Shown here: in pieces, positions 15,005 through 42,900 of the stretch
Numbering within the stretch: the first letter of the stretch is position 1
Layout of the letters: each line of letters begins with the position of its first letter
DNA from: Prinia subflava
Taxonomy: Eukaryota; Chordata; Aves; Passeriformes; Cisticolidae
Length of the DNA: 64,000 bases
Direction: 5' to 3'
Assembly (NCBI RefSeq): GCF_021018805.1
Contig: NC_086251.1
Location: 19,201,098 to 19,265,097, forward strand
Program-made: the position numbers and the translations under genes
Notes under the pieces: generated by a model
Seen by the model: only the letters and a program-made list of their open reading frames with translations
Database searches by the model: none
Told to the model about the DNA's origin: nothing

Positions 15005-15009
15005 GCACT
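15005..15009. repeat. target-site duplication, left copy
   Basis: GCACT immediately before the TG of the left LTR matches GCACT immediately after the CA of the right LTR (25429-25433). Two LTRs with conserved TG/CA ends and a direct repeat outside them show one integrase-mediated insertion with no later rearrangement at its ends. Five bp is within the range used by retroviruses. Confidence 0.93.
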
Positions 15010-15054
15010 TGTAAGAAATATGGCTAGGAGACCTTCTGCTCCAATTAAAATGCC

Positions 15055-15060
15055 TTTATT
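15055..15060 (-). terminator. 3' LTR polyadenylation signal AATAAA
   Basis: TTTATT on the + strand is AATAAA in viral sense, 45 bp before the viral 3' end of the LTR. This is where the R/U5 boundary would be expected, implying a short U5. It would end viral genomic and env transcripts. It faces away from LRP5 transcription. Confidence 0.8.
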
Positions 15061-15686
15061 GGATCAGCTCTTTTGAGGGGTGGGGGCTCGAGGGGCTGCG
15101 CACACCGCCGCTGCTCCCACGGAGAGCACCGCCGAAGAGGAGGAGATGGTCGGTCCTGCTGCTGATGCTGCAGAGCCGGGGCTTCCGTCCTCACGGGAGT
15201 TCTCCGGAACGCCTGACGTGGCTCGTCGTGTCTAGGGGTGTCACCTCCCTAGAGTGCTGTTGCGGTGAGGGCGAGGAAGTTCGAGGCTCCGAGGCTCCGG
15301 CTGCTAGCTGGACAGTTGCTTAGTCCAACAGTGTCTCTTGCAGGCTCCAGTTTGGCCTTGGTCAGTGGCTCTAAAGGGCTATCTGCCCTAACTGGACTTC
15401 CGGGTTTGGAAGTGCATCCTGGGAGCCTTGGAGTCTTTTACATCGGAGGCGGAGTTTCCAGCAACCAGACAGAGGCGGAGCCCGGTGGAGCAGCAGGGGC
15501 GGTGTCGAGGGCGGTGCTCGCGTGACTGGCACGTGGGGAGCAGCGGAGGCAGTACACAGCAGGGGTGAAAGGGGCGGAGGAACTGGGAATACAGGGAACA
15601 GGGGTTACAAAATAGAACTTATAACTCTGAGCAAGATAACTACAATTGGGTAAGTATAACTGTTAACAAATTGTGACATTTCTTTT

Positions 15687-15744
15687 AACATTAACTTCAA
15701 ACTCATTTATCTCAATAACATTAACTCTGAACTCATTTCTCTCA
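15687..15744 (-). repeat. 28-bp direct repeat at the U3 terminus (3' LTR)
   Basis: Two 28-bp units, 15687-15714 and 15717-15744, are separated by AT and differ at only a few positions. The outer unit forms the very edge of the LTR (viral sense TGAGAGAAATGAG) and the inner one repeats it almost exactly (TGAGATAAATGAG). The same pair occurs in the other LTR. The viral terminus used by integrase therefore has a near copy 30 bp inside U3. Confidence 0.85.
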
Positions 15745-15759
15745 ATCCCCCCTCCTTTT
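15745..15759 (-). promoter_or_regulatory. polypurine tract
   Basis: In viral sense AAAAGGAGGGGGGAT directly abuts the TG of the 3' LTR. This is the position and composition of the RNase H-resistant primer for plus-strand DNA synthesis. It begins only 24 bp after the env stop codon, so there is essentially no extra sequence between env and the LTR. Confidence 0.9.
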
Positions 15760-15783
15760 ATTTGATCGGGCTCTACGCCCGCA

Positions 15784-17565
15784 TCAATTTACTGTTTTTA
15801 AATTTCTAGGGGCACTAATTCCCAATGTTTGATATTGATCATACACCTTTTTGGCAGTACTCAATTTTTCTGTTTCTGTTTTTACTTTCATTAATTTGGC
15901 TGACCCTTGGTTAAATGTCCCTGAGGTTTGAATACTTGTTTGTACACTGGAAGTTACTATTCGGATTAAGCATGGGATTAAACATGGGAGAAGCAAAAGA
16001 CTAGTTATGGCACACAATATCATAAACCCTAGTTTTTTCCACCACTCTCCTTTCCAACTCCAAAAGTTCTCCCACCAGTCCATGCTAGCTAAGGGCTGCC
16101 ATTCTTGGTTGCCTACATAAGCTATTTTTCTGATTTCTTTTGAAATGTTTCTAATAACTTCACTTCTGTCGTCTATTTCTAGGCAACATTCTGATGTATT
16201 AAATTTCCCGCAAATTCCCCCTTCATCAGCCAGTAGGTAGTCAACAGCTAACCTTATTTGGTAGATCGTGGATCTGGTTTGGGATAATTGGTGACTCACG
16301 TGATCTAGGGCCATTGCTGTTCTATTCGAGATAACTTCTAATACTGCTTGTAGTCTTATTATTCTATTCAACATGTATATGGGCGTCCTGTAACCCCATG
16401 ACCCATCTTGCGCCCAGGTAGCTGGCCCATATGTTTCTATTATTCTCTCTGGGGTCCAAATTTGATCTTTCCATTTCTGAGAACTTCCCAAATCGATGAT
16501 GGTTCTTCTCTTTCTACTGACAGGTTTTAGATGGTCATATAGGGGAACTCCTAATTCGTTTTCAAAATTTTTAGGCAACATGAAAAATGCAGGTTTAATT
16601 ATCCCAATTGTGCAGCTCCCAGCCCAATCCCCTGGTAGACGGGTATATGCCTTATTCCCACATATCCAAAATAAATAATTTGGGGCTTCCCAAAGAGAGG
16701 TATGTGTATAGAAGGGGCCTTCCCAATATTTTGCTATCTCCCGTATTCCCCAGAAAGGATTCTTCACGTGACTTGCACAATTGTATAGGTTATATCCCTC
16801 ATGATATATACATCCTTGCTTTTCCTTTTTTGCTGTCCAATAAGTCGAGGGCTCACTAGGTATCCACATTTGTTGTTGTTCTCTTATTACTAGATACCTT
16901 TTACAAATCATATCCCCAACATATGTTTTAAACCTTTCACCCACTCTTTTAATACACTCTTCTCCTATTATTTTCGACTTTAGCTCCCAATTTTCATCTC
17001 CCCTTTGGGTTTTCTTTAATTTCAGCTCTGGGTTTGTCTGTTTCCACCTGAGAATGTCTATAGCACTTAGGCTTGTCCCCTCCCATGGCCACATATCTGT
17101 CATCTGGGTGCTCCCACATATCCAACAATTGGTAACATTCAATTCACGACTTATTTGTTCCACAAGATTTATGAACAAATTTTTGTTATATATTTCACTC
17201 CTAGATTCTTGTCTTAAGGCTTTTTCTTTTATTAGGTCTACAGACTCTTCAGAACTTTCTAATGTTTCCAGGCAAAGCCAGTCTTCCATAGGACATTCTC
17301 CCGTCATCCGCTGTTTATAATTTCCAGAATTTTTTACTGCCCAGTATTGGTTCCCCTCTTCCTGACATGTGGTCAGGTGGACTAGGTCTAAACATTGAGG
17401 CTTTACATGGGTATGCACCCTAATTAAGGATTGTAATTTTTCCCCATCGTAAATTGGTTGGTAACACTTGGGGCAGGCTCCTTCAATGGAGACAAGTGTT
17501 AATAAAACCATTATTAACTCTTTCAGAAATTTTGTATAATTCACCCATCTCTTAGGCAGCCCCAT
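15784..17565 (-). CDS. env: retroviral envelope glycoprotein (Env), intact
   Basis: An intact Env of 593 residues. I start it at the ATG at 17565, which is followed by a signal-like hydrophobic stretch (LIMVLLTLVS, about residues 17-26); the frame stays open six codons further upstream but only to a GTG. The surface subunit is rich in Cys and Trp and has a CWIC motif at about 147-150, the disulfide-isomerase-like motif that pairs with the transmembrane subunit. A furin-type RKRR at about 351-354 separates the subunits. The transmembrane subunit has a heptad-like helix, a Cys pair spaced C-X7-CC (452, 460-461), a Trp-rich membrane-proximal segment and a membrane anchor at about 512-537 with a cytoplasmic tail of about 55 residues. 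No strongly hydrophobic fusion peptide follows the furin site directly. The layout resembles the ERV3-like group of class-I Envs more than murine gammaretroviruses; that comparison is from memory. No frameshift or internal stop is present. Confidence 0.96.
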   Translation of the reverse strand: MGLPKRWVNYTKFLKELIMVLLTLVSIEGACPKCYQPIYDGEKLQSLIRVHTHVKPQCLDLVHLTTCQEEGNQYWAVKNSGNYKQRMTGECPMEDWLCLETLESSEESVDLIKEKALRQESRSEIYNKNLFINLVEQISRELNVTNCWICGSTQMTDMWPWEGTSLSAIDILRWKQTNPELKLKKTQRGDENWELKSKIIGEECIKRVGERFKTYVGDMICKRYLVIREQQQMWIPSEPSTYWTAKKEKQGCIYHEGYNLYNCASHVKNPFWGIREIAKYWEGPFYTHTSLWEAPNYLFWICGNKAYTRLPGDWAGSCTIGIIKPAFFMLPKNFENELGVPLYDHLKPVSRKRRTIIDLGSSQKWKDQIWTPERIIETYGPATWAQDGSWGYRTPIYMLNRIIRLQAVLEVISNRTAMALDHVSHQLSQTRSTIYQIRLAVDYLLADEGGICGKFNTSECCLEIDDRSEVIRNISKEIRKIAYVGNQEWQPLASMDWWENFWSWKGEWWKKLGFMILCAITSLLLLPCLIPCLIRIVTSSVQTSIQTSGTFNQGSAKLMKVKTETEKLSTAKKVYDQYQTLGISAPRNLKTVN

Positions 17566-17693
17566 GTTTTCTTCTTGTTTCACTTAGCTTTATCTCTTGG
17601 GTGTAGATCCTTACTACTCAAGGTCCTGTTTGAGATGTCCTGATCTCCACTCCCTTTCTTGACTAAATTTAATTAGTCCCTCCGGGGTGTGTC

Positions 17694-17695
17694 CT
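17694..17695 (-). other. candidate env splice acceptor
   Basis: In viral sense, CTTCCACAG|GACAC ends at this AG, after a moderately pyrimidine-rich stretch and shortly before the env start. It lies in the roughly 210-bp gap between pol and env, where a subgenomic env transcript should be joined. Predicted by eye only. Confidence 0.45.
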
Positions 17696-17794
17696 GTGGA
17701 AGATTTAATCAATAAACTTACTTAACTCACTCAAAAACATTCAACTTTTCTTAAAAAGATTAACAACTGATTTTGCTTTGTTACTATCACCATA

Positions 17795-20700
17795 TTACTT
17801 CTGGTTAGGTTTTGACTGCTTCCTCAGAACTACTTTAAGGGGTCCAGGCTTTTTGACAATTGTCCATTCAGGAATTTCTGACGCTAGTGAAGCGGGAGTT
17901 GGCTGATTTCCAGGAGGTGGCACGGGTCCTTTTACTCTCACTATATGTGTCCATCCTTTTTCTCTTGTTCTGACAGCTGTGTGGGTGGTGAGTAATACCT
18001 GGAATGGCCCCTCGAATTTGGGTGTCAATGGAGTGTTACTCCAGGACTTGACCAAGACCCAATCCCCAGGTTTTATGTGGTGTACATCTGCGTCCAGAGG
18101 AGAGGTTTGAGGAAGATACCCCTTTTTCCTCAATTCTGCCAATGTTATCCCAATTGTTTCTATATATTTTTGGACTTCGGCTTCCCCTTCAAGATAATCC
18201 CCTGTGCTCCAAGGGGTTAGCAAGAAGGGGAGCCCAAACATCATTTCATAAGGGGAAGCCCCTATGTCAGACCGGGGTCTTGTTCGAATTCTTAATAGGG
18301 CTAGGGGCAGACACTTAAGCCAATTCATCCCGGTCTCAGCTATTAATTTTGTTAAAACGTTTTTTAGGGTTTTATTCATCCTCTCGACTCTCCCTGAACT
18401 CTGGGGATGCCAAGGGGTATGTAACCTCCATTTAATTCCTAAAGCTTTAATAATTCCGTGCAGAATTTGCGATGTAAAGTGAGGGCCTCTATCAGAATCT
18501 ATATTATTTACCAAACCATACCTCGGGATAATTTGTTCTAGTAATATTCTTATTACCACCTGTGCTGTTTCTCGAGTGGTGGGAAATGCCTCTACCCAAT
18601 GGGTGAGATGGTCTACCATTACCAATATATGACGATGTCCTTGTACTGGAGGCATTTCTGTAAAATCTACCTGCATACTCTGGAAAGGCCTTAGTGCGAG
18701 TTCCCGTCCCCCAGGTATGGTTTTTCTCATTGCCTTCTGATTGACTTTCTGACATATTATGCACCCTTCAGTGACAGTTTTCGCCAACCCATACATTCCC
18801 ACACATACATATTCCCTTTGGAAATGGTCACATAATCCCTGTGTTCCCCAATGGGTCAAGTCATGGATCTCGGCTAACACTCGCCGGGCCATAGCTTTGT
18901 TCAAGAACTTTTTACCATCTGATGTTAACCATTCTCCATGCTTCCCCTGTACCAACTTCAAATCTCTGATTGCTTTTTGTTCCACCTCTGTATAGATTGG
19001 CTTTTCCCCCTGTTCTGGTGGGGTATTTAGTTCAAAGATTTTTACCACCTTTTCTGACTTCTGGGCCGCCGCCTTTGCGGCTTGATCAGCAACTCGGTTC
19101 CCCCTTATTTCAAATGTGTCCCCGCTTTGATGTCCTCTTATATGCACCACTGCCACCTCTTTTGGCTTCATTAAGGACTCCAGAACAGACCTAACTAGCT
19201 CCTTGTGGGCTAGCCCTTTTCCCTTTGAATTTAAATAACCTCTTTCCTCCCAGATTTTTCCAAAAACATGCACCACCCCAAAAGCATAGCGAGAGTCTGT
19301 GTATATAGTTCCCGTGTCTTGCTCTAGCAAGTCCAGTCCTCTTTTGAGAGCATATATCTCACAACATTGGGCCGACCAGTTGGCAGGCAGCTTCCCCTCT
19401 TCCAGTATCTTAAAACCTTCTTCCTTCAGTCCTTCAGTCACTGCATATCCCGATGCCCTCTTTCCCTCTATTACTCTGGAGGAACCATCGGTAAACAAGA
19501 TCCTTCCATATGGCAATGGGGTGTCCTCTAGGTCTTCCCTTACCCTCGTTTGTAGATCAATAACCTCTAGGCAGTCATGTTCTATCTCTGGTAATGGTTC
19601 GCCAGAAAGGAATTGGGCAGGATTCAGACTCTTGGATGTAGTTAACTCCAGATCTTTTGTGTTTATAAAAATAATTTCATACTTTAAAATCCGAGGATCA
19701 GTAAGCCATTGTTGAGCCTTCTGGGAGAGTATAGTCTTTAAATCATGTGGAGTATGAACCACTATTTTCCCTTGGAGGGTTAACTTCTGGGCTTCCTCTA
19801 TGAGTACTGCTGCCGCTGCTATCGCCTGCAGGCAAGATGGCCATCCCCTTGCAACTGGATCCAAGAGTTTTGATAAGTAGGCGACTGGCTTCTTATACCC
19901 TCCCCATTCCTGAGTTAATACCCCATAAGCGATTCCCTCCTCTGCGTTTACAAACAGGTCAAATTTTTTCTTCAAATCGGGTAAACTAAGGACTGGGGCA
20001 GAGGACAGCTTGGTTTTTAGAGCTTCGAGTTGGGCCTCATCTTCTGGTGTCCATTTAACAGGTTCTGATTGTGCCAATTTTTCATATAGGAATTTCACAG
20101 CTTGGGAATACTGGTCTATCCATAATTTGCAGTATCCAAATAATCCTAACAACTTCCTCACATCACGCTTAGTTTTTGGGGCCGGGATTGACACTATCCC
20201 TGAGATCCGCTCGGGGCTTAATTTCTTATACCCTCCTCCTATAATATGTCCAAGGTAGGTAACTTGTGACTCTAAAAATTGTAACTTAGATTTTGATGCC
20301 TTCAAGCCTCCCTTCCCCAGGAAATTTAATAAGTCAATGCTGGTTTGTCTTACATCATCTTTTTCCTCCCCAGATACTAAAATGTCATCCACATACTGTA
20401 AGATCTGTATTCCATTTTTAGAGGTAAACTGCTTTAGTAGTTCCTCGAGGGCTTGTCCAAATAAATTGGGTGACTCTGTGAACCCCTGGGGAAGTCGTGT
20501 CCACCTCAGCTGTTGCTTTCTCTTAGTTTCGGGACACTCCCACTCAAAAGCGAACCAATTTCGACTTTCCTCCGCAAGAGGGCAGGCCCAAAAAGCATCC
20601 TTTAAATCTATTACTGTAAACCAATTGTGTTCTCGGGGAATTTGACTCAATAAAGTATAGGGGTTGGACACCACTGGGTATCTTGTAATAGTCCTCTTAT

Positions 20701-21367
20701 TTACTTCCCTTAGGTCTTGTACTAGTCTAAATTTTCCCCCAGCCTTTTTGACTGCTAGTATGGGGGTATTATGTGGTGACATACAAGGCTCCAATATTCC
20801 TTCGGCCAACAGATGGCTTACTACTGAGGCTAGTCCCTTTTTGGCTTCTGTAGAAAGAGGATATTGTTTCACCCTAACTGGAGATATCCCTTCTTTCATC
20901 TCCACTCTTATGGGGGAAATGTCTAGATACCCATATTTTCCATCCTCTGCCCATACCTTCTGATTAATTTCACCCAAATCTTCAGCCGTTAATTTCATCA
21001 TGCGAACTACCATCTTTCCCCCTTGTGGAATTACCCCTATCCCTAGCCGAATTTGTAAGTCTCTTCCTAGCAAATTTCCTTCTATCTTGGGTAAATACAC
21101 AAATTCACTAAACAAATATTTTGAATTTCCTCTAACCTCAACATCCTCTAACACAGGGGCCATAAATGGCTCTCCTTCTGCTCCTAAAACACTACACATC
21201 TTTTTCCCTACTGCAATTCCCTTTGGAAGATTATTCAAGCTAGATTTATCCGCCCCGGTATCTACTACAAACTCATATTCTTCCCGATAAGGACCCACTT
21301 CCAGTTTTACTATGGGCTCTTCTAGATGTTTAATGGGGTCCACCAGAGGAAAGAGCCCAAGACACCC
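17795..21367 (-). CDS. pol: Pol polyprotein (protease, RT, RNase H, integrase), intact, read through from gag
   Basis: Open from the codon after the gag UAG to a stop at 17795, in the same frame as gag, so it is expected as a Gag-Pol readthrough product and not from its own start. Using residue numbers from the GTG at 21343, the aspartic protease has DTGA at 28-31. Reverse transcriptase has Asp245 in VIDLKDAF and YVDD at 316-319. RNase H has Asp618, Glu661, Asp682 and Asp752. Integrase has a His-His-Cys-Cys zinc site (His826, His830, Cys860, Cys863) and a D,D-35-E triad at Asp892, Asp950 and Glu986. A GPF motif follows in the C-terminal domain. About 1,190 codons are open with no frameshift. 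Every catalytic residue I looked for is present, so an active enzyme set is plausible, though activity is not shown by sequence. Pol does not overlap env, unlike in murine leukaemia-type viruses. Confidence 0.97.
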   Translation of the reverse strand, partial: GCLGLFPLVDPIKHLEEPIVKLEVGPYREEYEFVVDTGADKSSLNNLPKGIAVGKKMCSVLGAEGEPFMAPVLEDVEVRGNSKYLFSEFVYLPKIEGNLLGRDLQIRLGIGVIPQGGKMVVRMMKLTAEDLGEINQKVWAEDGKYGYLDISPIRVEMKEGISPVRVKQYPLSTEAKKGLASVVSHLLAEGILEPCMSPHNTPILAVKKAGGKFRLVQDLREVNKRTITRYPVVSNPYTLLSQIPREHNWFTVIDLKDAFWACPLAEESRNWFAFEWECPETKRKQQLRWTRLPQGFTESPNLFGQALEELLKQFTSKNGIQILQYVDDILVSGEEKDDVRQTSIDLLNFLGKGGLKASKSKLQFLESQVTYLGHIIGGGYKKLSPERISGIVSIPAPKTKRDVRKLLGLFGYCKLWIDQYSQAVKFLYEKLAQSEPVKWTPEDEAQLEALKTKLSSAPVLSLPDLKKKFDLFVNAEEGIAYGVLTQEWGGYKKPVAYLSKLLDPVARGWPSCLQAIAAAAVLIEEAQKLTLQGKIVVHTPHDLKTILSQKAQQWLTDPRILKYEIIFINTKDLELTTSKSLNPAQFLSGEPLPEIEHDCLEVIDLQTRVREDLEDTPLPYGRILFTDGSSRVIEGKRASGYAVTEGLKEEGFKILEEGKLPANWSAQCCEIYALKRGLDLLEQDTGTIYTDSRYAFGVVHVFGKIWEERGYLNSKGKGLAHKELVRSVLESLMKPKEVAVVHIRGHQSGDTFEIRGNRVADQAAKAAAQKSEKVVKIFELNTPPEQGEKPIYTEVEQKAIRDLKLVQGKHGEWLTSDGKKFLNKAMARRVLAEIHDLTHWGTQGLCDHFQREYVCVGMYGLAKTVTEGCIICQKVNQKAMRKTIPGGRELALRPFQSMQVDFTEMPPVQGHRHILVMVDHLTHWVEAFPTTRETAQVVIRILLEQIIPRYGLVNNIDSDRGPHFTSQILHGIIKALGIKWRLHTPWHPQSSGRVERMNKTLKNVLTKLIAETGMNWLKCLPLALLRIRTRPRSDIGASPYEMMFGLPFLLTPWSTGDYLEGEAEVQKYIETIGITLAELRKKGYLPQTSPLDADVHHIKPGDWVLVKSWSNTPLTPKFEGPFQVLLTTHTAVRTREKGWTHIVRVKGPVPPPGNQPTPASLASEIPEWTIVKKPGPLKVVLRKQSKPNQK

Positions 21368-21370
21368 CTA
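21314..21370 (-). promoter_or_regulatory. gag-pol UAG readthrough site with downstream stem/pseudoknot
   Basis: The gag stop (21368-21370, UAG followed by G) is in frame with pol. Nine nt downstream, GGGCTCTT (21351-21358 on the complementary strand) can pair perfectly over 8 bp with AAGAGCCC (21314-21321), leaving a 29-nt loop. GGGGU overlapping the stop (21364-21368) is complementary to ACCCC in that loop (21335-21339), which gives an interleaved H-type pseudoknot topology. A structured element about 8 nt after UAG is the known readthrough stimulator of murine gammaretroviruses. The pairing is seen in the sequence; its function is inferred. Confidence 0.65.
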
Positions 21371-23164
21371 GTCGTCATCCTCTTCTCCTTTCAATATTTT
21401 TTCCAGGGCTTCTTGCTCCCTCATGATAGCTCTGTCAAAAGACTCCTTATTACAATCCTTCTTCAAATGTCCCACCTCTCCACAATAATAACATTTCCTC
21501 CCCTCACCTGGTTTCTGAGGGGTTTCCCAGGGGGGTAGGTCCTTCTTATTTCCCTTCCTCGGGGGAACTCTAGAGCCTTGCCTCCCTTGTAAGCCTTGGT
21601 CTCCCTTAACACTTTCTCTCGCTATGGCTACCATAATTCTCGCTTTTCCTTTTGCCTTCTCCTCATCTCTCCTTAAATATACCTTAAGAGCTTCCCTCAA
21701 TAATTCATTGGTCCCCCTGTCTTGCCAATCCTCCAGTTTTTCTAATTTTCTCCTTATATCGGGCCAGGATTTAGTTACAAATTGAATCTTTAAAAGAGCC
21801 TGGCCTTCAGGGCTATCCGGATCCAGATTGGAATATTGTTGAATATTTTGTCTCAGCCTGTTCAACCAGGCCGCTGGCGTCTCGTTCTTCTCCTGAGTCC
21901 CATCAAAAGCCATTTTAGTGTTGTTGTTACGGGGAACAGCCTCCTTAATTCCTTTTATTATTAAGCTTCTATAATCTTCCATATTTCGCCTGTCTATATC
22001 TCTGTTCGGGTCCCAACCAGGATTGGTTATAGGTAGCTTATAATCTCCTGGAGGGCCCATCCGATTTTCCCTTTCCCAAGCTTTAATCCCTGCAGTCCTA
22101 ATTAATCTAACTTCTTCAGGATTGAATAATATACCCAGGATGGAATTCATTTCCTCCCATGTGTAAATGTTTGGACCTAAAAATTGATCTACCTGATTGG
22201 CTACCCCCACAGGATCTTCTACTAAATTCCTGAGCTCCTTTTTGAATCCCCTAACTTCAGATGCCATGAGGGGTGCATTTACGAACCCCACTCCTCCCGT
22301 CATCCCTCCCATGGGGACTTCCCTTAGGGGAAAGAGCTTTGTCCTAGCACGTGTGTTGCAGTAAGGTCCTTCCGAAGTTCCTGGTCTTAGAGGGGGAGAA
22401 GATACTATCTCATTATGTTCATTTTGGGGAGAAGAACCCGGTTCCCAGTGCAGAGGGGGTGCTGGAATTACAGAGGGTGCTGGGGTCGGTTGGGATTCTA
22501 AGGGGGCTTGAGGTGGAGTGGGGAAATGGAAAGGGTTGGTTTTTGAGGGCTCCGGGTAAATCGGAGGGGACATTGAGGAAGCTGCTGTTGGGGAAGCACC
22601 TGCTAGGGTCTGTGGGGGTGGTGAAGGTGCAACTGCTGGGGGAATGTCTACTGGGGAGGTGATTGGGGGAGGGGTAGAGGTCTCTGGCTGGGCTCGAGGG
22701 CTAGAGGTTGGAGGAGGGTTCGGATAGCTCGGGGGTGGCAGATAATTAAGGGGGTCCCACCCCGGTTTGGCTATTTTCACTTCTTTTTCCTCTTTTTCTT
22801 CTTCCTCTGTTCTCTTAAGTTTACATATCTTTACTGTCCCTTCCTCCAATGCTATTTTCTTCCAACAGTCAGCATACAAAACCTGCTCTGGATCTATATC
22901 TCTGTGTGTCTTCAAATACCGACTCAGCTGTTCGCACATCCACGGATCCCTCGTGCCACACCATGACCACTCTCCAGCTAGGCTCAAGGTTGGCCAAACC
23001 TCCATACAATAATGGATCATCTTTACTCTATCTAGGCCTCTAGTCACTTCTTGGGTCTCCCACTGCTCCAGCACTTGTGCTAGGGGACTTCCTGGTGGTA
23101 TACTTTTTATTTCTTCCTTTCCTCTCTTCTCTGAGTTTTGATTCTTACTCAAGCACGCTCCCAT
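21368..23164 (-). CDS. gag: Gag polyprotein, intact
   Basis: An intact Gag of 598 residues starting at a true ATG, with Gly2 followed by a basic segment, consistent with N-myristoylated matrix binding to the plasma membrane. A long Pro/Ser/Thr-rich linker (about 140-260) holds two PPxY late-domain motifs, PPSY at 144-147 and PPIY at 200-203, which would recruit NEDD4-family ubiquitin ligases for budding. Capsid probably begins at Pro279 (PLREVP), and a major-homology-like segment lies at about 421-440. Nucleocapsid has one CCHC zinc knuckle (CYYCGEVGHLKKDC, 558-571) after a basic stretch, then an acidic tail ending GEEDDD. One knuckle is typical of gammaretroviruses; alpha- and betaretroviruses have two. 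The frame ends in UAG, through which pol is read. No disruption is seen. Confidence 0.97.
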   Translation of the reverse strand: MGACLSKNQNSEKRGKEEIKSIPPGSPLAQVLEQWETQEVTRGLDRVKMIHYCMEVWPTLSLAGEWSWCGTRDPWMCEQLSRYLKTHRDIDPEQVLYADCWKKIALEEGTVKICKLKRTEEEEKEEKEVKIAKPGWDPLNYLPPPSYPNPPPTSSPRAQPETSTPPPITSPVDIPPAVAPSPPPQTLAGASPTAASSMSPPIYPEPSKTNPFHFPTPPQAPLESQPTPAPSVIPAPPLHWEPGSSPQNEHNEIVSSPPLRPGTSEGPYCNTRARTKLFPLREVPMGGMTGGVGFVNAPLMASEVRGFKKELRNLVEDPVGVANQVDQFLGPNIYTWEEMNSILGILFNPEEVRLIRTAGIKAWERENRMGPPGDYKLPITNPGWDPNRDIDRRNMEDYRSLIIKGIKEAVPRNNNTKMAFDGTQEKNETPAAWLNRLRQNIQQYSNLDPDSPEGQALLKIQFVTKSWPDIRRKLEKLEDWQDRGTNELLREALKVYLRRDEEKAKGKARIMVAIARESVKGDQGLQGRQGSRVPPRKGNKKDLPPWETPQKPGEGRKCYYCGEVGHLKKDCNKESFDRAIMREQEALEKILKGEEDDD

Positions 23165-23196
23165 TCTTCCTTTGGGTCTAAAATTAAGAGAGATAC

Positions 23197-23593
23197 GGTG
23201 CCCTTACTCGAACGTAAACTTTAAGTTAGGGCAACTTAATTTATTAACGCTCGACCCTTGTCAAACTCAAGAGGTTTTCTAAGGTGCCCCTACTCGAACG
23301 GAAAACTACAGACGGGCAACTCAAATCTTAAATTATCATTCACACCTTAACACTTAGGAGTAGCTTGGCAATCCCCTTGGATTCTGGCCCACTACTCCTA
23401 CGCTCAAGGGTAGGCAACCCCTTCAGAGTTCTGGCCAAACCCCCTCGCGTTAGTGTTCCCTTTCACGCCTCGGTCCCCTGAAGGCAAGGCAATCCCTCCG
23501 GATTCTGGCCACTACCTCAGCTGGCACCGATTCCGCACCTAGGCAATAGTCTGTTGACCCCCGAGAGCAGGGCAACCCCTCTGGGTTCCGGCC
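23197..23593 (-). repeat. diverged direct repeats in the leader
   Basis: A GGTGCCC-TACTCGAACG motif occurs at 23197-23214 and 23283-23300, each followed by a GGGCAACT. A second motif, GGCAA(T/C)CCC...TTC(T/C)GGCC on the + strand, occurs at 23367-23389, 23413-23436, 23488-23510 and 23571-23593. Most spacings are about 75-86 bp (one is 46), suggesting an old, diverged tandem unit of roughly 80 bp. Repeated stem-loops for packaging or translation are one possible role; that is inference. Confidence 0.7.
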
Positions 23594-24007
23594 ACTGCTC
23601 GAGTCTCACTACTCCTAGTGCCTTTCCTTTCTCTCCTATACTACTGTCACCCCTGGTCAGCTTCCACGGCTTTCCAGGCGCTCGGAACAACCTAGCCTCC
23701 CAGCTGATGACCAGCGGTATAGTGTGCAACTCTCTCGTTCTGTTCCCTATAGTTTGGACTTCTTGCACTTGAAATCCCTACCTCTCGTGCACTGTGCCCA
23801 GTAGCTACCAGATCTGCAATAACTACCAGTCACACAGCTCCAGCCACTCCGGTGCTCCAGACGCTGCCCGACTCACTACACAGTTACCCCACTGCCGGCT
23901 TCACCCAGGTCCCCTGCGCCCCTCTAGGTAACCTCTCAAGCCGCCCGACTCACGCACAGCCTCTCGGTTGCCAGTCCCACTCCAGGGACCGTCCGGACTC
24001 ACACCTC

Positions 24008-24040
24008 TCACTCTCTCCTCTCACTCTCTCTCTCTCTCTC
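24008..24040. repeat. CT-rich microsatellite in the leader
   Basis: An uninterrupted (CT)n core at about 24024-24040 is preceded by imperfect CT/CACT units. In viral sense it is a GA-rich tract in the leader. Confidence 0.85.
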
Positions 24041-24477
24041 GCCGCAGCTCCAGACTGGCACCCCCTTTCACTCCCCGCCACTGCAACAGTCCCTCCCCTA
24101 GGTAACCCCTTCCTAAGGTTCACTGCCAGTGCGGTGCGCGCCTTGCTCCGCTCTTGGATACCCTGCGCGCTTAGGGTAACCCAGGCTGCCTAACCCTTGA
24201 TTGCGATGGGGGTGGCTTACTATCACTCGTCCCCTGACGTGTCACTCACTCCTTACTTGTGCCCTCCACACGTCCGGAGGGGGGGTGTCTATTACTCCCC
24301 TGGAGGCGCCTCTTTCTTCCAATCGCCTTTCGCTTCCCCACGGTCCCGGCCGGCCCACTCGCGTGAGTCCGGAAACGCGGTACTAGTGGGTCCTCACTCG
24401 CTTGGGGAGTCCGGCTGCCGGCCCCCCTCTCACTCACACACCACTCGCTCGCCTCCACTCCCGCCGCCGGGGTTCTT

Positions 24478-24479
24478 AC
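24478..24479 (-). other. candidate env splice donor
   Basis: In viral sense GTG|GTAAGAA, a good match to the donor consensus, lies about 180 nt after the primer binding site. It would join the candidate acceptor at 17694-17695 to make env mRNA. It was chosen by eye; other GT sites in the leader are weaker. Confidence 0.4.
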
Positions 24480-24520
24480 CACTCCTCGGCGCTCCTCCGC
24501 GGTGCTGGTCCCTCGCTGAT

Positions 24521-24572
24521 CCTCGGCGCTGGTCTTCGGCGCCGGTCCTCGGCGCTGGTCTTCGGCGCCGTG
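24521..24572. repeat. 26-bp tandem repeat, two copies
   Basis: 24521-24546 and 24547-24572 are near-identical units of the form CCTCGGCGCTGGTCTTCGGC plus GCC-rich end, with a degenerate partial copy just before. Very CpG-rich, consistent with little methylation-driven decay since insertion. Confidence 0.85.
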
Positions 24573-24661
24573 TGGGTCCCGCGTCGTCCGTGTAGCCGAC
24601 GATCCCTCGAAGATCCGAAGCAGGCGGCCGTCCCGTCGAATCTTCTTCGGTGGGCGTGGCT

Positions 24662-24679
24662 CTCCCGGACGAGCCCCCA
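24662..24679 (-). promoter_or_regulatory. primer binding site, tRNA-Pro type
   Basis: In viral sense TGGGGGCTCGTCCGGGAG lies 3 nt (AAT) after the 5' LTR. It matches the classical proline tRNA primer site of gammaretroviruses at 17 of 18 positions; the last base is G where T is usual. This sets the 5' end and strand of the provirus. Confidence 0.92.
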
Positions 24680-24727
24680 ATTTGTAAGAAATATGGCTAG
24701 GAGACCTTCTGCTCCAATTAAGATGCC

Positions 24728-24733
24728 TTTATT
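24728..24733 (-). terminator. 5' LTR copy of AATAAA
   Basis: TTTATT on the + strand is AATAAA in viral sense, 45 bp from the viral 3' end of this LTR, at the same place as in the other LTR. In the 5' LTR it is normally bypassed. Confidence 0.7.
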
Positions 24734-24761
24734 GGATCAGCTCTTTTGAGGGGTGGGGGCT

Positions 24762-24783
24762 CGAGGGGCTGCCGAGGGGCTGC
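24762..24783. repeat. 11-bp tandem duplication private to the 5' LTR
   Basis: CGAGGGGCTGC occurs twice in a row here and once at the matching place in the 3' LTR. It fully explains the length difference of 746 against 735 bp and looks like replication slippage during or after integration. Confidence 0.93.
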
Positions 24784-25370
24784 GCACACCGCCGCTGCTC
24801 CCACGGAGAGCACCGCCGAAGAGGAGGAGATGGTCGGTCCTGCTGCTGATGCTGCAGAGCCGGGGCTTCCGTCCTCACGGGAGTTCTCCGGAACGCCTGA
24901 CGTGGCTCGTCGTGTCTAGGGGTGTCACCTCCCTAGAGTGCTGTTGCGGTGAGGGCGAGGAAGTTCGAGGCTCCGAGGCTCCGGCTGCTAGCTGGACAGT
25001 TGCTTAGTCCAACAGTGTCTCTTGCAGGCTCCAGTTTGGCCTTGGTCAGTGGCTCTAAAGGGCTATCTGCCCTAACTGGACTTCCGGGTTTGGAAGTGCA
25101 TCCTGGGAGCCTTGGAGTCTTTTACATCGGAGGCGGAGTTTCCAGCAACCAGACAGAGGCGGAGCCCGGTGGAGCAGCAGGGGCGGTGTCGAGGGCGGTG
25201 CTCGCGTGACTGGCACGTGGGGAGCAGCGGAGGCAGTACACAGCAGGGGTGAAAGGGGCGGAGGAACTGGGAATACAGGGAACAGGGGTTACAAAATAGA
25301 ACTTATAACTCTGAGCAAGATAACTACAATTGGGTAAGTATAACTGTTAACAAATTGTGACATTTCTTTT

Positions 25371-25428
25371 AACATTAACTTCAAACTCATTTATCTCAAT
25401 AACATTAACTCTGAACTCATTTCTCTCA
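25371..25428 (-). repeat. 28-bp direct repeat at the U3 terminus (5' LTR)
   Basis: The same pair of 28-bp units as in the 3' LTR, at 25371-25398 and 25401-25428. It was therefore present in the infecting or ancestral virus and did not arise after insertion. Confidence 0.85.
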
Positions 25429-25433
25429 GCACT
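25429..25433. repeat. target-site duplication, right copy
   Basis: GCACT directly after the right LTR, matching the left copy at 15005-15009. Confidence 0.93.
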
Positions 25434-37400: not shown

Positions 37401-39555
37401 CCTGCTGGGTGCCCATGGCCAGCACAATGCGGCTGCAGCTCCATCAGGGCATCTCTGAAGAGCAGAAGTGACAGAGAACACGGTGGTTAACACGTTATCT
37501 GCGTGCTGCTGCCCCACTGGGTACATCAGCGGGGAAGAGATCCCTTGAAAGGGATGGGGAGCTGGGATAATGTTGATGTTGATTGGATTAGACACTTCTC
37601 ATGTCTGATCTTTAGTTTAAGAAGCTGTCGAGTTCCTATGCTGTTGATTGGACTTGATACTTCAGGTTTGTTTTTCCTTTGTAGTAGCATTAATAATGCC
37701 TTCAGCATGGAGATGTCTAGATGAAAATCCATCTGTTCAGATTCCTCCAGACATGTTTTTTGGAAAATATTTTTTAAAAAATTCTACATGGGCTTTTTAC
37801 AGTTTTAATCTTCGACTGGATGTGGGGCTGGTTTTGTGAGGTGGTGTGCAGAACTTGAGAAGGTCTCTGCCCCAAAGAATTTGTGACTTAAAGCCTTCTA
37901 ACATGAAACTGCCCAAGTGTTCAAATGGTTTGATACAGTGCCACTTAAAACAGACATGGCTCTGAGGAACCAATGAGCTGCAGAGAAGAAAACAAGGACT
38001 TGGTATTTTAAACCTTTTTTGTCTGTTTGCAATAACTAACCTGTTGGACTTTCCTGATACTATTCCTAGTGTTTTTAAAGACGACTGAGAGAAGGACTTG
38101 GCAAGCCAGCAAAATTAAATAGATGGGATACTGAGACTTCATTTCTTAACAAGTAATTCTCCTCAAGCTGTATAAACTTTCTTAAATTAAGTATAGTAGA
38201 GAACAAAGATACTACATCTTCAGTGAAACATTAATGATAACAATTGGTTCTCCTTACTGTCCAAGAGCCTCACTAAAAACATCGGGTGATGTAAATTGCA
38301 TCAACATACTCTTCCTTCAAAAAGCAAAATAAAACAATCTCTTTTCTGACTTAGGGGGAAAAAGAAGACCATGGTGAATGATAATAAAAATTCTAAATTT
38401 TTATGCATGTTTTTGAGTTCATCTGAAGTTGAGGTATACATTCTGACTGAGGTCCTTGGCCTGCACATAAACACGTCAGCTGTTGTCAGGGATGTGCAGA
38501 GGCACAGGCTGTCCAGTGAGAATGTAGCCAGAGCCAGAATTCACGAGAAAGGCAATAGCATCTGACAGGGCTGCCAGCACTGCAGACCTGCAATTCAGAC
38601 ACTCTATAAACTATCTTCTTTTTAAAAAAGTGCAGGAGGAATTGAATCTGACAGACAGCATCAAGGAGTAACTCTTATATATTACATGCAGTAACATTAA
38701 TTTATAACGAAAGGTATTTATTTGACAGGCTTGAACCATAGGAGGTACAATGCATGCTGTTCTATTCTTTGTGTTGTTCCTTGAGTAGTAAGTGATTGGG
38801 CCTGTGCTGACTGTGCACTGGAGGCAGCACATTGAATGAAGTGGTTGTACGTGAAGCTGGGAGTCAGCAGGTGACTGGTGTAGAACTCCAGCAGCTACTG
38901 CTTGAGTTAGAAAAATTGGGATGAGATTGGGGAAGCTGAGAAGCCTTTGTCCTTTTGCTCTTGCTGCCTCTTTCAGCTAACAGCATTCTTCACAAACACC
39001 CACAACCCATGTCATTGTCTGCATTCAAACTCGGTCTTGAATTTCTCTTGCTGTGGTGCAGGAGAGAAGACAGGAGTTCTGAAACTCTTACCAGTTTTTG
39101 CCCTTGGGAGTGTGCTTGGTAGGAGCATTTCAGGGTGTTGTGTCTAGTGCTGTTAGCTTTCAGCCTGCTACTTAAAGGCGTCAGAGCTTGCTTTCTGCTT
39201 GTTGTTACCAATTCAGCTGGTTGAACTAAGCTTTTAAACCATGAAGACTTTATTTGTTCTAGTTTGTCCTTTGTTAGAACAACAGACAGAAGGTGTTGTT
39301 GAAAGGTCTTGATCTGAACTCCTAACTATGTGGAAGATGCTGTTCACATCCCATAGATAAAGAATTGGGCCTGCTCTTCCATCTCTGGTTTACACCTCTG
39401 TCTGACATAGGGAAGGAAGAGACTTTTGGATACTTCTATACTCCCTGCCCTGCCGGTCTGGGAGGAGAAATCCTCCTCTGCCACGTACATGGTCAGCTCC
39501 TGAACATCTGTAGGTGCCTGTCATGCTAACGTGCTTTCATTTTCTCCCCCTGCAG
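25434..39555 (+). other. LRP5: LRP5 intron 1, part right of the provirus
   Basis: About 14 kb of AT-rich intron ending in a pyrimidine tract and CAG just before exon 2. It contains a 17-A run at 26223-26239, a CR1 3' end at about 33.8-34.3 kb, a short repeated AGAGGACTTTA near 33692-33717, and T-rich or GTTT-rich tracts at about 31601-31617 and 37083-37127. Open frames are all short, overlap on both strands and lack splice context. No RNA gene or exon can be supported. Confidence 0.8.
33804..34262 (+). mobile_element. CR1 LINE 3' fragment
   Basis: The segment runs from a GACCTGCTGGAGAGTCCAGAGG-like part of the reverse-transcriptase 3' end, through CCAGGCCAGACTGGATGGGGC, to a tail AACCCAAACCATTCTGTGATTCTATGA. 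That final repeated octamer (ATTCTGTG, ATTCTATG) is diagnostic of avian CR1 3' ends. It is 5'-truncated, as nearly all CR1 copies are, and degenerate, with no coding capacity. Confidence 0.9.
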
Positions 39556-39952
39556 CATCTCCCTTTCTGCTGTTTGCCAACCGGCGGGACGTGCGGCTCG
39601 TGGACGCGGGGGGCACGAAGCTGGAGTCCACTGTGGTGGTCAGCGGCTTGGAGGATGCCGCCGCCGTGGACTTCCAGTACTCACAAGGCATCGTTTTCTG
39701 GACAGATGTGAGTGAAGAAGCCATCAAGCAAACTTACATTAACCAAACTGGGAATGTGGTGCAGAATGTCATCATTTCTGGTCTGGTTTCCCCGGACGGC
39801 CTGGCGTGTGATTGGATTGGGAAAAAGCTTTATTGGACGGATTCAGAAACCAATAGGATAGAAGTAGCTAATCTCAATGGAACATCTAGAAAAGTCCTCT
39901 TCTGGCAAGACCTTGATCAGCCCAGGGCAATAGCTTTGGATCCGGCTCATGG
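39556..39952 (+). CDS. LRP5: LRP5 exon 2 (propeller 1, first blades)
   Basis: LRP5 is a single-pass cell-surface co-receptor that, with Frizzled, receives Wnt and starts beta-catenin signalling; SOST and DKK1 antagonise it. This 397-nt exon lies between a CCCCCTGCAG acceptor and a GG|GTAAAT donor, entering in phase 1 and leaving in phase 2. It encodes the mature N-terminus ([20 protein letters not shown]) and the first blades of the first YWTD beta-propeller, with FWTD and LYWTD motifs. Wording such as LANGTSRKV-type and [15 protein letters not shown] fits LRP5 rather than LRP6, as I recall the two. The exon is GC-rich against its intron. If exon 1 has the human length, the Asp of SPDG is Asp111, a residue mutated in human high bone mass. 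Confidence 0.97.
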
Positions 39953-42900
39953 GTAAATATTAATTTAGCTTAAATACTTAAATGGATATGGGGGTGATTT
40001 ATGTTGAGTTTTTAGTTCTAAAAAGAAAAGGAACACATAGCCTTTTGTTTTACTTTACATTTTCCTGAGGTATTTTTCTCAAGATCTGTAACTGAACATG
40101 TGTTCGAGCTTAAATATTTTGTGGCAGAAAATGGCAGCCCAGGCCTTGAGCCAAAAAGAAAAATACGGCTGGTTCTTAGGTGCCAAGCCAAATATTCAAC
40201 CAGTATAATTACCTGGCTTATCCCGTTGCACTTTGGAAAAGTAATTAATTTTCCAAGCATTCTTTTATTATTATTATTTTCTCAGTTACCTTCTCTGGTA
40301 AGTTAACTTTGATTTTATATGTGATGTCTATTTAATGCAGACAGCAACATGTGCAAGTCTGCATGTGTTGAAACAGGAATTCTCACTTGATATGCTCTGG
40401 TAAACCAAATCAGGATATTTTTAAGTGATGATGTTGAATAGTTGTGTTTGTGCCAGCAAGGGAAAGAATCCAGGTGAAACTGTGGATTCTCAATGCTGTA
40501 AAGTGACCATGTTGAGAAGTAGTAAGAGTGCAGGCTGCATGTATTGCTTCTAGTGCTCTTAAAAATACTCGTGTATGTGTATGGTTCCTCCATCGCTCTT
40601 CAATCCTCCCCAGGGTTTCACATGTGCTGTTTGCTCTCCCCTGTGCACAAGCAGTGCTGGTGCTGTGTCCTTTGGGCCTAGAATTTACTGCAGTGATGAC
40701 TGAAGATGTGCAGTGCTAGGTGGACCCTTATGAAAACAAGGAAAGAGAACTGAAGTGTATTTCTCTTGTGTGCACAGAGCCACACAAGTGAGCTGGTTTG
40801 CCACTGATCTGCTGCCATTTTCTCAATACTTTCTCGGAGATCACTTTATCTTTTTCTAGGGTATGCGTAGGTAGGATTCTCATCTGTGGGAAAATCTGGC
40901 ATTAACTGGTATTTTCACTGAGTCTGTCCTCTGCAAAATGATGCTGAGGTAATGCAAGGGCTTAGTGTAAACCATAAAAATAAAGTATTTGGTGTTTTAT
41001 CCTGCTCTGGGAGATGGGTAGTTTCTTGAGAAACTACCTGCTTTGAATGTGCAAGAAGTGAAAATGGAAACTGAGCAACAGAGGACAACTTTGGATCGCC
41101 ATGTCAGCATCTACCATGCCTCAAATTGGAACTTTGGTTTGTTTTTGCAGTGTTTCCTATATAAGATTTTCCAGATGAATGTGAGGAGTTATAGGTACAT
41201 TTATGATTAATACATAAAGGCCACGCAAAGGCTAAATGAAACTGTGTGTACCCAAAGAAACAAAATCCTTAGTTTTGTTGGCACGTCAAATGCTGGAGCT
41301 GCCTATATCCTTCACATAATGGTTGGAAAGCTACAGCCATTACCAGTGGAAGGGGAAGTGGAGTGATTTTGTTGGGCCAAAGGACTTTTCCAGAGGGGTC
41401 CTTATCCAGTCAGTCCTGCCTTCTTTACAGATGCCTTTATGTGAAGGAATTCTCCCCACAGCAGATTGTTGTATAGAGGTGTTTTAAATAAATTAACAGG
41501 AATCCTGTTGTATCCTGACAGCAAATAATCTATGCAGAATTAATTCATGTTGATTAATTAGATGTAGAGTTCAGTAGTACATTTGAAGAGATAATATGAT
41601 GTTAAATTGAGTCTTTCATGGTGAGGTGGATTACAGAGAGTGGTATGGCACTTGGCATAATGCACCAGTGCCGGGTTTACTTCTTGTAAGTGGATGCAGT
41701 TCCTTGCCTTTTGACTGATTCCTTAAGTGTTGAATCAAAGACAGGTTTGCCTGAGAAACTAATATATTAAACTTAGAAGAAAATTTGAAAAATCAGACAT
41801 CACGTATATTTGTGGAGTGAAACATTCAGGTTTGCTTTTTACAACCACTTCATTTCACCTGGTATTTCTGAAATACTTCCTAGGTGCATCTGTGAAATAA
41901 TGATCGTGACATTTGATTTTGGCACAGCAGGCTCTGGGGTTGAGCTCCCATAGAACCATATGTTCCTTGTTCCAGATAGTCTCAGGGAAAGAGAAGTGGG
42001 TGACAGTAGAAGAAAAGAATAATTTAATAATTTTTTGAAATCAGGTGGCTAATACTGTTCCTACAACTGTCAGAACTGTATTAGGTCAGAGCACCTGAGT
42101 AAGTTTGTGGGGTTTTTTCCTGGATCATGAAATCTGATGAAGTTCAGACTAGGATTCTTAAAACAGGTTGATGCAATCTGTCACTGGCTGGTCATTTGCT
42201 TTCAGTTTGGAAGAATTTCTATTCCACAGATGTGATTTTGTCCTTTTAGCAGTTTCTACTAGAGAAGTGTGGGTGGGAATCTTAGAAAAAGAGGAAGAAA
42301 ACTTCATTAGTCAATGTCAGTTTCCAGAAGCAAAATGGTACAAATAAGCAGTTTGCAAATCCGTAGCTGATACTATTAGTACCCAAACATGGGTTTGTCT
42401 GGGATGCTCCAAATCAAACAAATCTAATTTCTCTGTCTTGAGAAAATAACATGTTGTTGTCCAGAATGGTGACACCTTCTTTTGTCTTCTAGCTTTAGTG
42501 AGGCTGTTCTGCAGAGGTGGATGGAGGACTGTGTTGTGGTGTTTGCAGTGGGGTGTCATGCCCAGAGTGGCATTTGCTTAATAAGTAGCTTTAATTCCAT
42601 TTGGAGTGCAATTCTTCAAGACGGAGACTAGTTTGAGAGAATAGAGAAGAACATCTTGACTATACAGTTTCTCAGGAACATCAGAGGTGTAATGACCAAG
42701 CCTTAGGACATGGGAGAGGGGCTAAGTTGACTTCTGGAGTTTCCTTTTGAAGCCTGTTTTTCTGTGATTTCCAGTTGACATTCAGGAGTATGATTTTTCA
42801 GATGTTCTGATGGGCTCCCTAAGTAGTAAGTCAGATGATTGTGGTGTAGTGACATTTTTAAAGAGCTGCATCTTTTGCACACTCAGCCTATCTTCCTTCT

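What the first reader, a model, noticed from the sequence alone, without database searches (positions are those of the whole stretch)
15010..25428. Apparently complete, coding-competent gammaretrovirus-like provirus in a bird genome
gag, pol and env are all open from end to end, every catalytic residue inspected is present, and the cis elements (both LTRs, primer site, polypurine tract, polyadenylation signals) are in place. Most avian class-I ERVs are broken. Seen: the frames and motifs. Inferred: possible residual activity, or expression that the host tolerates.
Basis: partly seen in the sequence, partly recalled or inferred. Interest (0 to 1): 0.85.

Follow-up and report, generated by a model that had tools for sequence, protein, structure and literature searches.

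The report
Young, coding-complete songbird endogenous retrovirus
A songbird chromosome carries a recently inserted retrovirus whose genes are all still readable; it is a genuine provirus of a known kind, and the same genome holds others with similarly open genes.

Summary
Window 15010-25428 is a complete provirus on the minus strand: TG...CA LTRs of 735 and 746 bp that differ by one substitution and one 11-base unit, flanked by the 5-bp target duplication GCACT. It has a tRNA-Pro-type primer site, a polypurine tract, and open gag (598 aa), in-frame UAG then pol (1190 aa), and env (593 aa). The interpretation needs three corrections.
(1) It is class I, but its Pol is not in the MLV-like clade; it sits among songbird ERVs. 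Env belongs to an ERV3/ENR1-like group with a CX7CC fusion subunit (108 of 120 listed hits) and a suppressyn-like N-terminal domain.
(2) Intactness is not unusual here: at 16 of 39 scored pol places, this one included, the gag, pol and env matches hold no stop, and a sister family expanded very recently.
(3) Its own subfamily is small: 3 proviruses (two defective) and 13 LTRs without a partner.
The host is almost certainly Prinia subflava (two exact contig lengths). The provirus lies antisense, about 14 kb upstream of an LRP5/LRP6-type exon. Expression and infectivity are untested.

The parts
15005..15009 (.). target-site duplication copy GCACT (3' side of provirus)
15010..15744 (-). 3' LTR, 735 bp, TG...CA
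15055..15060 (-). AATAAA polyadenylation signal of the 3' LTR
   Evidence: 5' LTR copy
15745..15760 (-). polypurine tract next to the 3' LTR
15784..17565 (-). env, 593 aa; hydrophobic N-terminus, CWIC in SU, RKRR cleavage site, CX7CC in TM, one C-terminal membrane anchor
17260..17535 (-). SU N-terminal domain matching suppressyn (E 1.5e-8 single sequence; 2.2e-17 with the 20-row Env profile)
17584..17794 (-). 211-bp gap between the pol stop and the env reading frame (no pol/env overlap)
17795..21367 (-). pol, 1190 aa: protease, RT, RNase H, integrase
21368..21370 (-). in-frame amber stop between gag and pol (UAG followed by G in 8 of 8 loci compared, this one included)
21368..23164 (-). gag, 598 aa: Gag_p30 core, one CCHC knuckle, MGAC N-terminus, two PPxY motifs
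23165..24682 (-). 5' leader, 1518 nt, 59% GC, one ATG against 11.4 expected
24662..24679 (-). primer-binding site, tRNA-Pro type (identification of the tRNA recalled)
24683..25428 (-). 5' LTR, 746 bp
25429..25433 (.). target-site duplication copy GCACT (5' side of provirus)
39504..39953 (+). stop-to-stop frame holding a host exon with LDL-receptor class B repeats, LRP5/LRP6 type; a second such exon near 53.8 kb, a third near 57.7 kb recognised by eye only

Best explanation
A recently integrated, full-length class I endogenous retrovirus of a songbird, at one site of the germline, antisense to and about 14 kb upstream of an early coding exon of an LRP5/LRP6-type gene (probably in an intron of it). 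Shown: two near-identical LTRs, a 5-bp target duplication, and three open genes in retroviral order. Inferred: transcription starts in the 5' LTR; full-length RNA gives Gag, and Gag-Pol by reading through the UAG; a spliced RNA gives Env; a tRNA-Pro primes reverse transcription. The gene products look functional by conservation. Whether the host lets this copy be expressed is unknown.
For: LTR pair, ends and target duplication; ORFs and motifs; domains; relatives in songbirds for Pol, Gag and Env and a Pol tree; 19 near-full-length LTRs of the family in the same genome, 13 of them without a partner, of which 8 have 5-bp, 3 have 4-bp and 2 no convincing duplication; a second young provirus of the family with LTRs identical over 736 of 736 aligned bases and its own duplication GAAGA, but internally deleted; host contig lengths equal to those listed for two Prinia subflava proteins.
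Against: The LTRs are not identical (one substitution, one 11-base unit). No expression data. The stem after the UAG is no more stable than shuffles (z -0.81, 40 of 200 fold as well). Splice sites and transcription start were not located. Two ATGs lie in the LTR at 302 and 328, downstream of the only TATAA at 122, so the leader is AUG-poor only after the LTR.
Confidence: 0.93

Rival explanations
1. The open genes are kept by selection because the host uses one of them (a co-opted Env, as with syncytins).
For: Env keeps all 100 conserved columns; the LRP5/LRP6-type neighbour is a developmental gene (function recalled).
Against: The insertion is so young (1 substitution in 735) that open frames need no selection; gag and pol are equally open; stop-free copies of other families sit at many places.
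Confidence: 0.04
2. An assembly artefact: a collapse or mosaic of several copies that hides defects.
For: The C27 copy of the family is itself odd: its LTRs differ by 11% and show no matching duplication although its genes are within 3-7% of the window's.
Against: For the window copy the two LTRs match each other far better than they match any other listed copy (next best 95%), the duplication is perfect, and the other copies are resolved at their own places.
Confidence: 0.04
3. A currently spreading (invading) retrovirus of the species.
For: Young LTRs here, identical LTRs at C7.
Against: Only 3 proviruses of this subfamily were found (a lower bound), 2 of them defective; the other listed LTRs of the family are 85-95% identical to the window's; another family fits this description better. 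The criterion of identical LTRs (PMC10435555, passages) is not met.
Confidence: 0.15

Closest known systems
Unnamed class I ERVs of songbirds (Hirundo rustica P0122, P0129; Taeniopygia guttata P0130; Pol)
   Same: Pol 72% identical over 1159 columns to P0122; these are the three nearest rows by path; the smallest well supported set that holds the window has 5 rows (SH-aLRT 96), these three and Lonchura P0124 with it
   Different: Other species; no DNA-level comparison made
ERV3/ENR1-like Env group (Vidua, Serinus, Hirundo, Cyanoderma, Ficedula; also sharks and rays, reptiles, mammals)
   Same: 56-67% identity to the ten best hits, seven of them named and all of those songbirds; CX7CC in 108 of 120 hits; TM start without a strongly hydrophobic stretch in the 59 hits tested
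   Different: Most listed relatives from mammals, reptiles and amphibians align only from about residue 102-136 on, whereas sharks and rays P0038-P0047 align from residue 16-25, so the N-terminal SU domain is more restricted
Suppressyn and syncytins (human, solved structures)
   Same: SU N-terminal domain matches suppressyn; TM core matches syncytin-1 and -2
   Different: CX6CC in syncytin-2 (alignment); domesticated human genes (recalled); receptor of this Env unknown
MLV-like gammaretroviruses (genus Gammaretrovirus)
   Same: Gag_p30, one zinc knuckle, in-frame UAG, RT closest to MLV-type RTs among solved structures, GPF-type integrase tail, tRNA-Pro site (MLV features recalled)
   Different: Pol in another well supported clade; CX7CC; 5-bp duplication; no pol/env overlap (overlap in MLV recalled)
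XtERV-S of Xenopus tropicalis (PMC8278194, abstract seen)
   Same: An intact ERV with three open genes in a wild vertebrate
   Different: Class III gag and pol, tRNA-Ser primer, identical LTRs

Membership tests
Endogenous provirus | paired LTRs with TG...CA ends and a matching target duplication | tested here: met
Class I (gamma-related) ERV | Gag_p30 core and one CCHC knuckle | tested here: met
Class I (gamma-related) ERV | gag and pol in one frame separated by a stop | tested here: met
   8 of 8 loci
Class I (gamma-related) ERV | GPY/F motif after integrase, no dUTPase | tested here: met
   MLVIN_C match just under its cut-off (27.7 of 29.2 bits) and no dUTPase match; GPF read
Class I (gamma-related) ERV | 4-bp target duplication (general value, PMC4299795) | tested here: not met
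   5 bp here; among 13 unpaired LTRs of the family 5 bp at 8, 4 bp at 3, none convincing at 2. The paper says the length is not consistent within classes
Genus Gammaretrovirus (MLV-like) | Pol within the MLV-like clade | tested here: not met
   outside the clade of P0236-P0239; root at midpoint, no exogenous virus in the tree
Genus Gammaretrovirus (MLV-like) | CX6CC in TM | tested here: not met
   CX7CC
ERV3/ENR1-like Env group | full-length Env similarity and CX7CC | tested here: met
ERV3/HERV-I lineage as a whole provirus | Pol grouping with HERV-I or HERV-R Pol | not tested
   no human HERV-I or HERV-R Pol was in hand
Invading ERV (ERVi, PMC10435555) | identical LTRs | tested here: not met
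   1 substitution and an 11-base gap
Invading ERV (ERVi, PMC10435555) | insertional polymorphism | not testable with these tools
   one assembly only

The most novel reading that the evidence does not exclude
This is a recently infectious member of a widespread but little-described retroviral lineage (birds to sharks) whose Env combines a CX7CC fusion subunit lacking a strongly hydrophobic fusion peptide with a suppressyn-like receptor-binding domain, and whose RNA has an AUG-starved 1.5-kb leader; exogenous relatives may still circulate in songbirds.
Probability: 0.25. Interest if true: 0.6.

Novelty: new member of a known kind. Interest (0 to 1): 0.3.

Why it matters
Coding-complete young proviruses show which retroviral lineages were infecting a host in the recent past. 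This one helps to describe a songbird class I lineage with an Env type (CX7CC, suppressyn-like N-terminal domain) that is not mentioned in the passages I read of two reviews of retroviral Env types (PMC3758190; PMC9967133). As a single finding it is ordinary, because the same genome holds other class I proviruses with similarly open genes, some of a family that expanded more recently.

Tried and rejected
Considered and set aside: a glyco-Gag extension (the gag frame is open only 13 codons above the ATG); a gene in the leader (160-codon open run across LTR and leader; the longest run inside the leader, 144 codons, is reached by 24 of 400 shuffles; no Pfam match); a significant readthrough hairpin (z -0.81); a second copy of this ERV in the window (none); RNA families (0 at gathering score); tRNA genes (0, bacterial-code ARAGORN). 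AUG-poor leader: strong in this subfamily (1, 1 and 4 ATGs in the window, C7 and C27 leaders against 11.7, 10.9 and 12.1; 0 of 500 shuffles each), weaker in five relatives (6-9 against 11.8-15.1; 5 to 20 of 500 shuffles reach it). The C7 and C27 leaders are partial, three of the relatives include some LTR, and the five relatives fall into two groups with nearly the same ATG places, so they are not five independent tests. Structure prediction was not run.
Full report
What is there. The window holds one provirus, read on the minus strand. The two LTRs span 15010-15744 (735 bp) and 24683-25428 (746 bp). They align over 747 columns (one flanking base included) with one mismatch and one 11-base gap, and end in TG...CA, with GCACT on both outer sides. 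Moving inward from the 5' LTR come a primer site matching the 3' end of a tRNA-Pro (identification recalled), a 1518-nt leader, gag, an amber stop, pol in the same frame, a 211-bp gap, env, a polypurine tract and the 3' LTR. gag is 598 aa, pol 1190, env 593. Pfam finds Gag_p30, one zinc knuckle, protease, RT, RNase H and integrase, with a match to an MLV-type integrase tail just under its cut-off. The motifs DTGA, YVDD, HHCC and D,D35E, PPxY and CCHC are in place. Chance cannot give such runs.

Is the coding really sound? At columns at least 95% conserved among 16 relatives, the window Pol differs at 4 of 266, all mild changes; the relatives, each tested in the same way, differ at 0 to 21. Env differs at 0 of 100 (16 relatives, 0 to 9). 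Gag, at 90%, differs at 3 of 145 (11 relatives, 1 to 29). Nothing suggests a hidden missense lesion, but the test cannot show activity.

Age. One substitution in 735 gives 0.31 million years at 2.2e-9 per site and year, with Poisson limits 0.008-1.72; at 1.5e-9 and 3.3e-9 the point values are 0.45 and 0.21. The rates are recalled, and the 11-base unit is not counted.

Host. The window lies at 19.2 Mb of contig C5 in a genome of 1.12 Gb. Contig C1 is 153,903,191 bases, the contig length listed for P0240, and C4 is 73,964,738, the length listed for P0017; both proteins are named Prinia subflava, a songbird of the family Cisticolidae. The exon at 39.5 kb matches LDL-receptor-related proteins in the structure bank, LRP4, LRP2 and LRP6 first; no LRP5 chain is listed. 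Its best other match in the genome is a 69% paralog on C4, as expected of an LRP5/LRP6 pair; that C5 holds LRP5 is my guess from memory. A second exon of the kind lies at 53.8 kb (Pfam); a third at 57.7 kb had no Pfam match and was recognised by eye. All are on the plus strand. No upstream exon was recognised, so 'intron' is inferred.

Copies in the same genome. With Pol as query, 39 places were scored (of 6400 candidates, so a lower bound): the window; C27 at 97%; C7 at 97% for residues 400-1182; six at 73-75% over nearly the whole length; two at 70-72% with many stops; 23 at 61%; five at 56-62%. 28 of the 39 have no stop in the match. Combined with the Gag (97 matches) and Env (98 matches) searches, 16 of the 39 places, the window included, have stop-free matches for all three genes. 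The matches are often partial, those places are the best-scoring ones, and for several others the gag or env search listed nothing, so this is neither a count of full ORFs nor a rate. The LTR search (40 of 112 candidates scored) gave 47 matches, 19 of them at 85% or more over nearly the whole length: 6 belong to the three proviruses and 13 have no listed partner nearby, which I take to be solitary LTRs; 8 of the 13 have a 5-bp duplication, 3 a 4-bp one and 2 none that convinces. The C7 provirus has LTRs identical over 736 of 736 aligned bases and a duplication GAAGA, but lacks the stretch between gag residue 264 and pol residue 400, and its env holds two stops. The C27 copy has one stop in each of gag, pol and env and a frame change near the end of pol; its LTRs differ by 11% and have no matching duplication, while its genes are within 3-7% of the window's, which suggests a recombinant.

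Relationships. Pol's nearest rows are Taeniopygia and Hirundo ERVs; the placement next to Taeniopygia has support 91, and the smallest set with support over 95 has 5 rows. A clade of 33 rows that includes it (birds, reptiles, a skate, unnamed rows) is separated with full SH-aLRT support from 13 rows that include the echidna ERV P0238, listed with PF01140. The tree used 45 of the proteins, chosen by coverage and name, midpoint rooting and a short search. Env's 130 relatives (120 listed) run from songbirds (56-67% in the ten best hits, three of them unnamed) to sharks and rays (36-39% in the seven that cover most of it, P0038-P0050). The cysteine motif is CX7CC in 108 of 120; the other 12 were not examined one by one. 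An Env review calls CX6CC rigidly conserved in gamma-type Envs (PMC3758190, passages); PMC9967133 holds neither ERV3 nor HERV-R (passages and term counts). CX7CC occurs in none of the 9 and 5 papers listed; other ways of writing the motif were not searched, nor anything outside that library. The first 60 residues of TM have a maximum mean hydropathy of 1.17 over 15 residues, against 2.67 at the membrane anchor, so a strongly hydrophobic N-terminal fusion peptide is lacking, as in 59 relatives with the same block (0.37-1.57). The SU N-terminal domain matches suppressyn at 1.5e-8 alone and 2.2e-17 by profile, and syncytin-1 more weakly. Suppressyn and syncytin-1 bind ASCT-type receptors (recalled), so a related receptor is a lead, not a result.

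Leader. The 1518-nt leader has one ATG where shuffles give 11.4 (0 of 1000 as low). gag, pol, env and the LTR in the coding direction show no such lack; the reverse strands of leader and LTR show a mild one (36 and 62 of 1000). The partial C7 and C27 leaders share it; five other relatives, in two groups, show it weakly. The likely reading is selection against upstream start codons in a leader that ribosomes scan; two ATGs inside the LTR do not fit if transcription starts at the TATA-like site.

Literature. Beta- and gamma-related ERVs are the most abundant in 48 bird genomes and more numerous in three oscine songbirds (PMC4272516, passages, and start of the abstract). In birds with strongly different sex chromosomes the W holds over half of the full-length, potentially active ERVs (PMC8310711, abstract and passages). 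Birds form solo LTRs more often than reptiles and mammals (PMC11009239, passages). A survey of 2004 vertebrates found at least 412 invading ERVs in 123 species (PMC10435555, abstract and passages). No paper in the library holds both 'Prinia' and 'endogenous retrovirus'.

Verdict. A real, young and coding-complete provirus; a new member of a known kind; of modest interest on its own.

Noticed in passing
L047-L058 (host genome C37, C4, C6, C7, C8, C14, C53, C1, C5, C36): A sister class I family (61% in Pol) has 23 listed places, 22 without a stop in the Pol match; in a 1-kb pol stretch of 12 of these, 11 differ by only 0-4 bases and the twelfth by 73-75: a very recent germline burst and a better candidate for ongoing activity than the window provirus.
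   Followed up: partly
host genome C7:6169463-6177639 (L011, L012, L015, L016): Provirus of the window's family with identical LTRs but an internal deletion, gag and pol parts lying in one open frame listed as 1057 codons, and two stops in env; a young defective copy, perhaps mobilised by another.
   Followed up: partly
host genome C27:1345098-1355439 (L002, L009, L010): Copy whose LTRs differ by 11% and lack a matching duplication though its genes are only 3-7% from the window's: probably a recombinant between proviruses.
   Followed up: partly
window 23165-24682: 1.5-kb leader with one ATG against 11.4 expected.
   Followed up: yes
window 15686-15746 and 25370-25428: Imperfect 30-bp tandem repeat at the U3 end of the LTR; its copy number seems to vary between family members.
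   Followed up: partly
host genome contigs C26 and C27 (4.6 and 4.1 Mb): Many gag, env and LTR matches for their size; possibly W-linked pieces, not tested.
   Followed up: no
window 34246 and 46000: Octamer runs like the CR1 LINE 3' end (pattern recalled, also given in a passage of PMC6523648), as expected in a bird.
   Followed up: no
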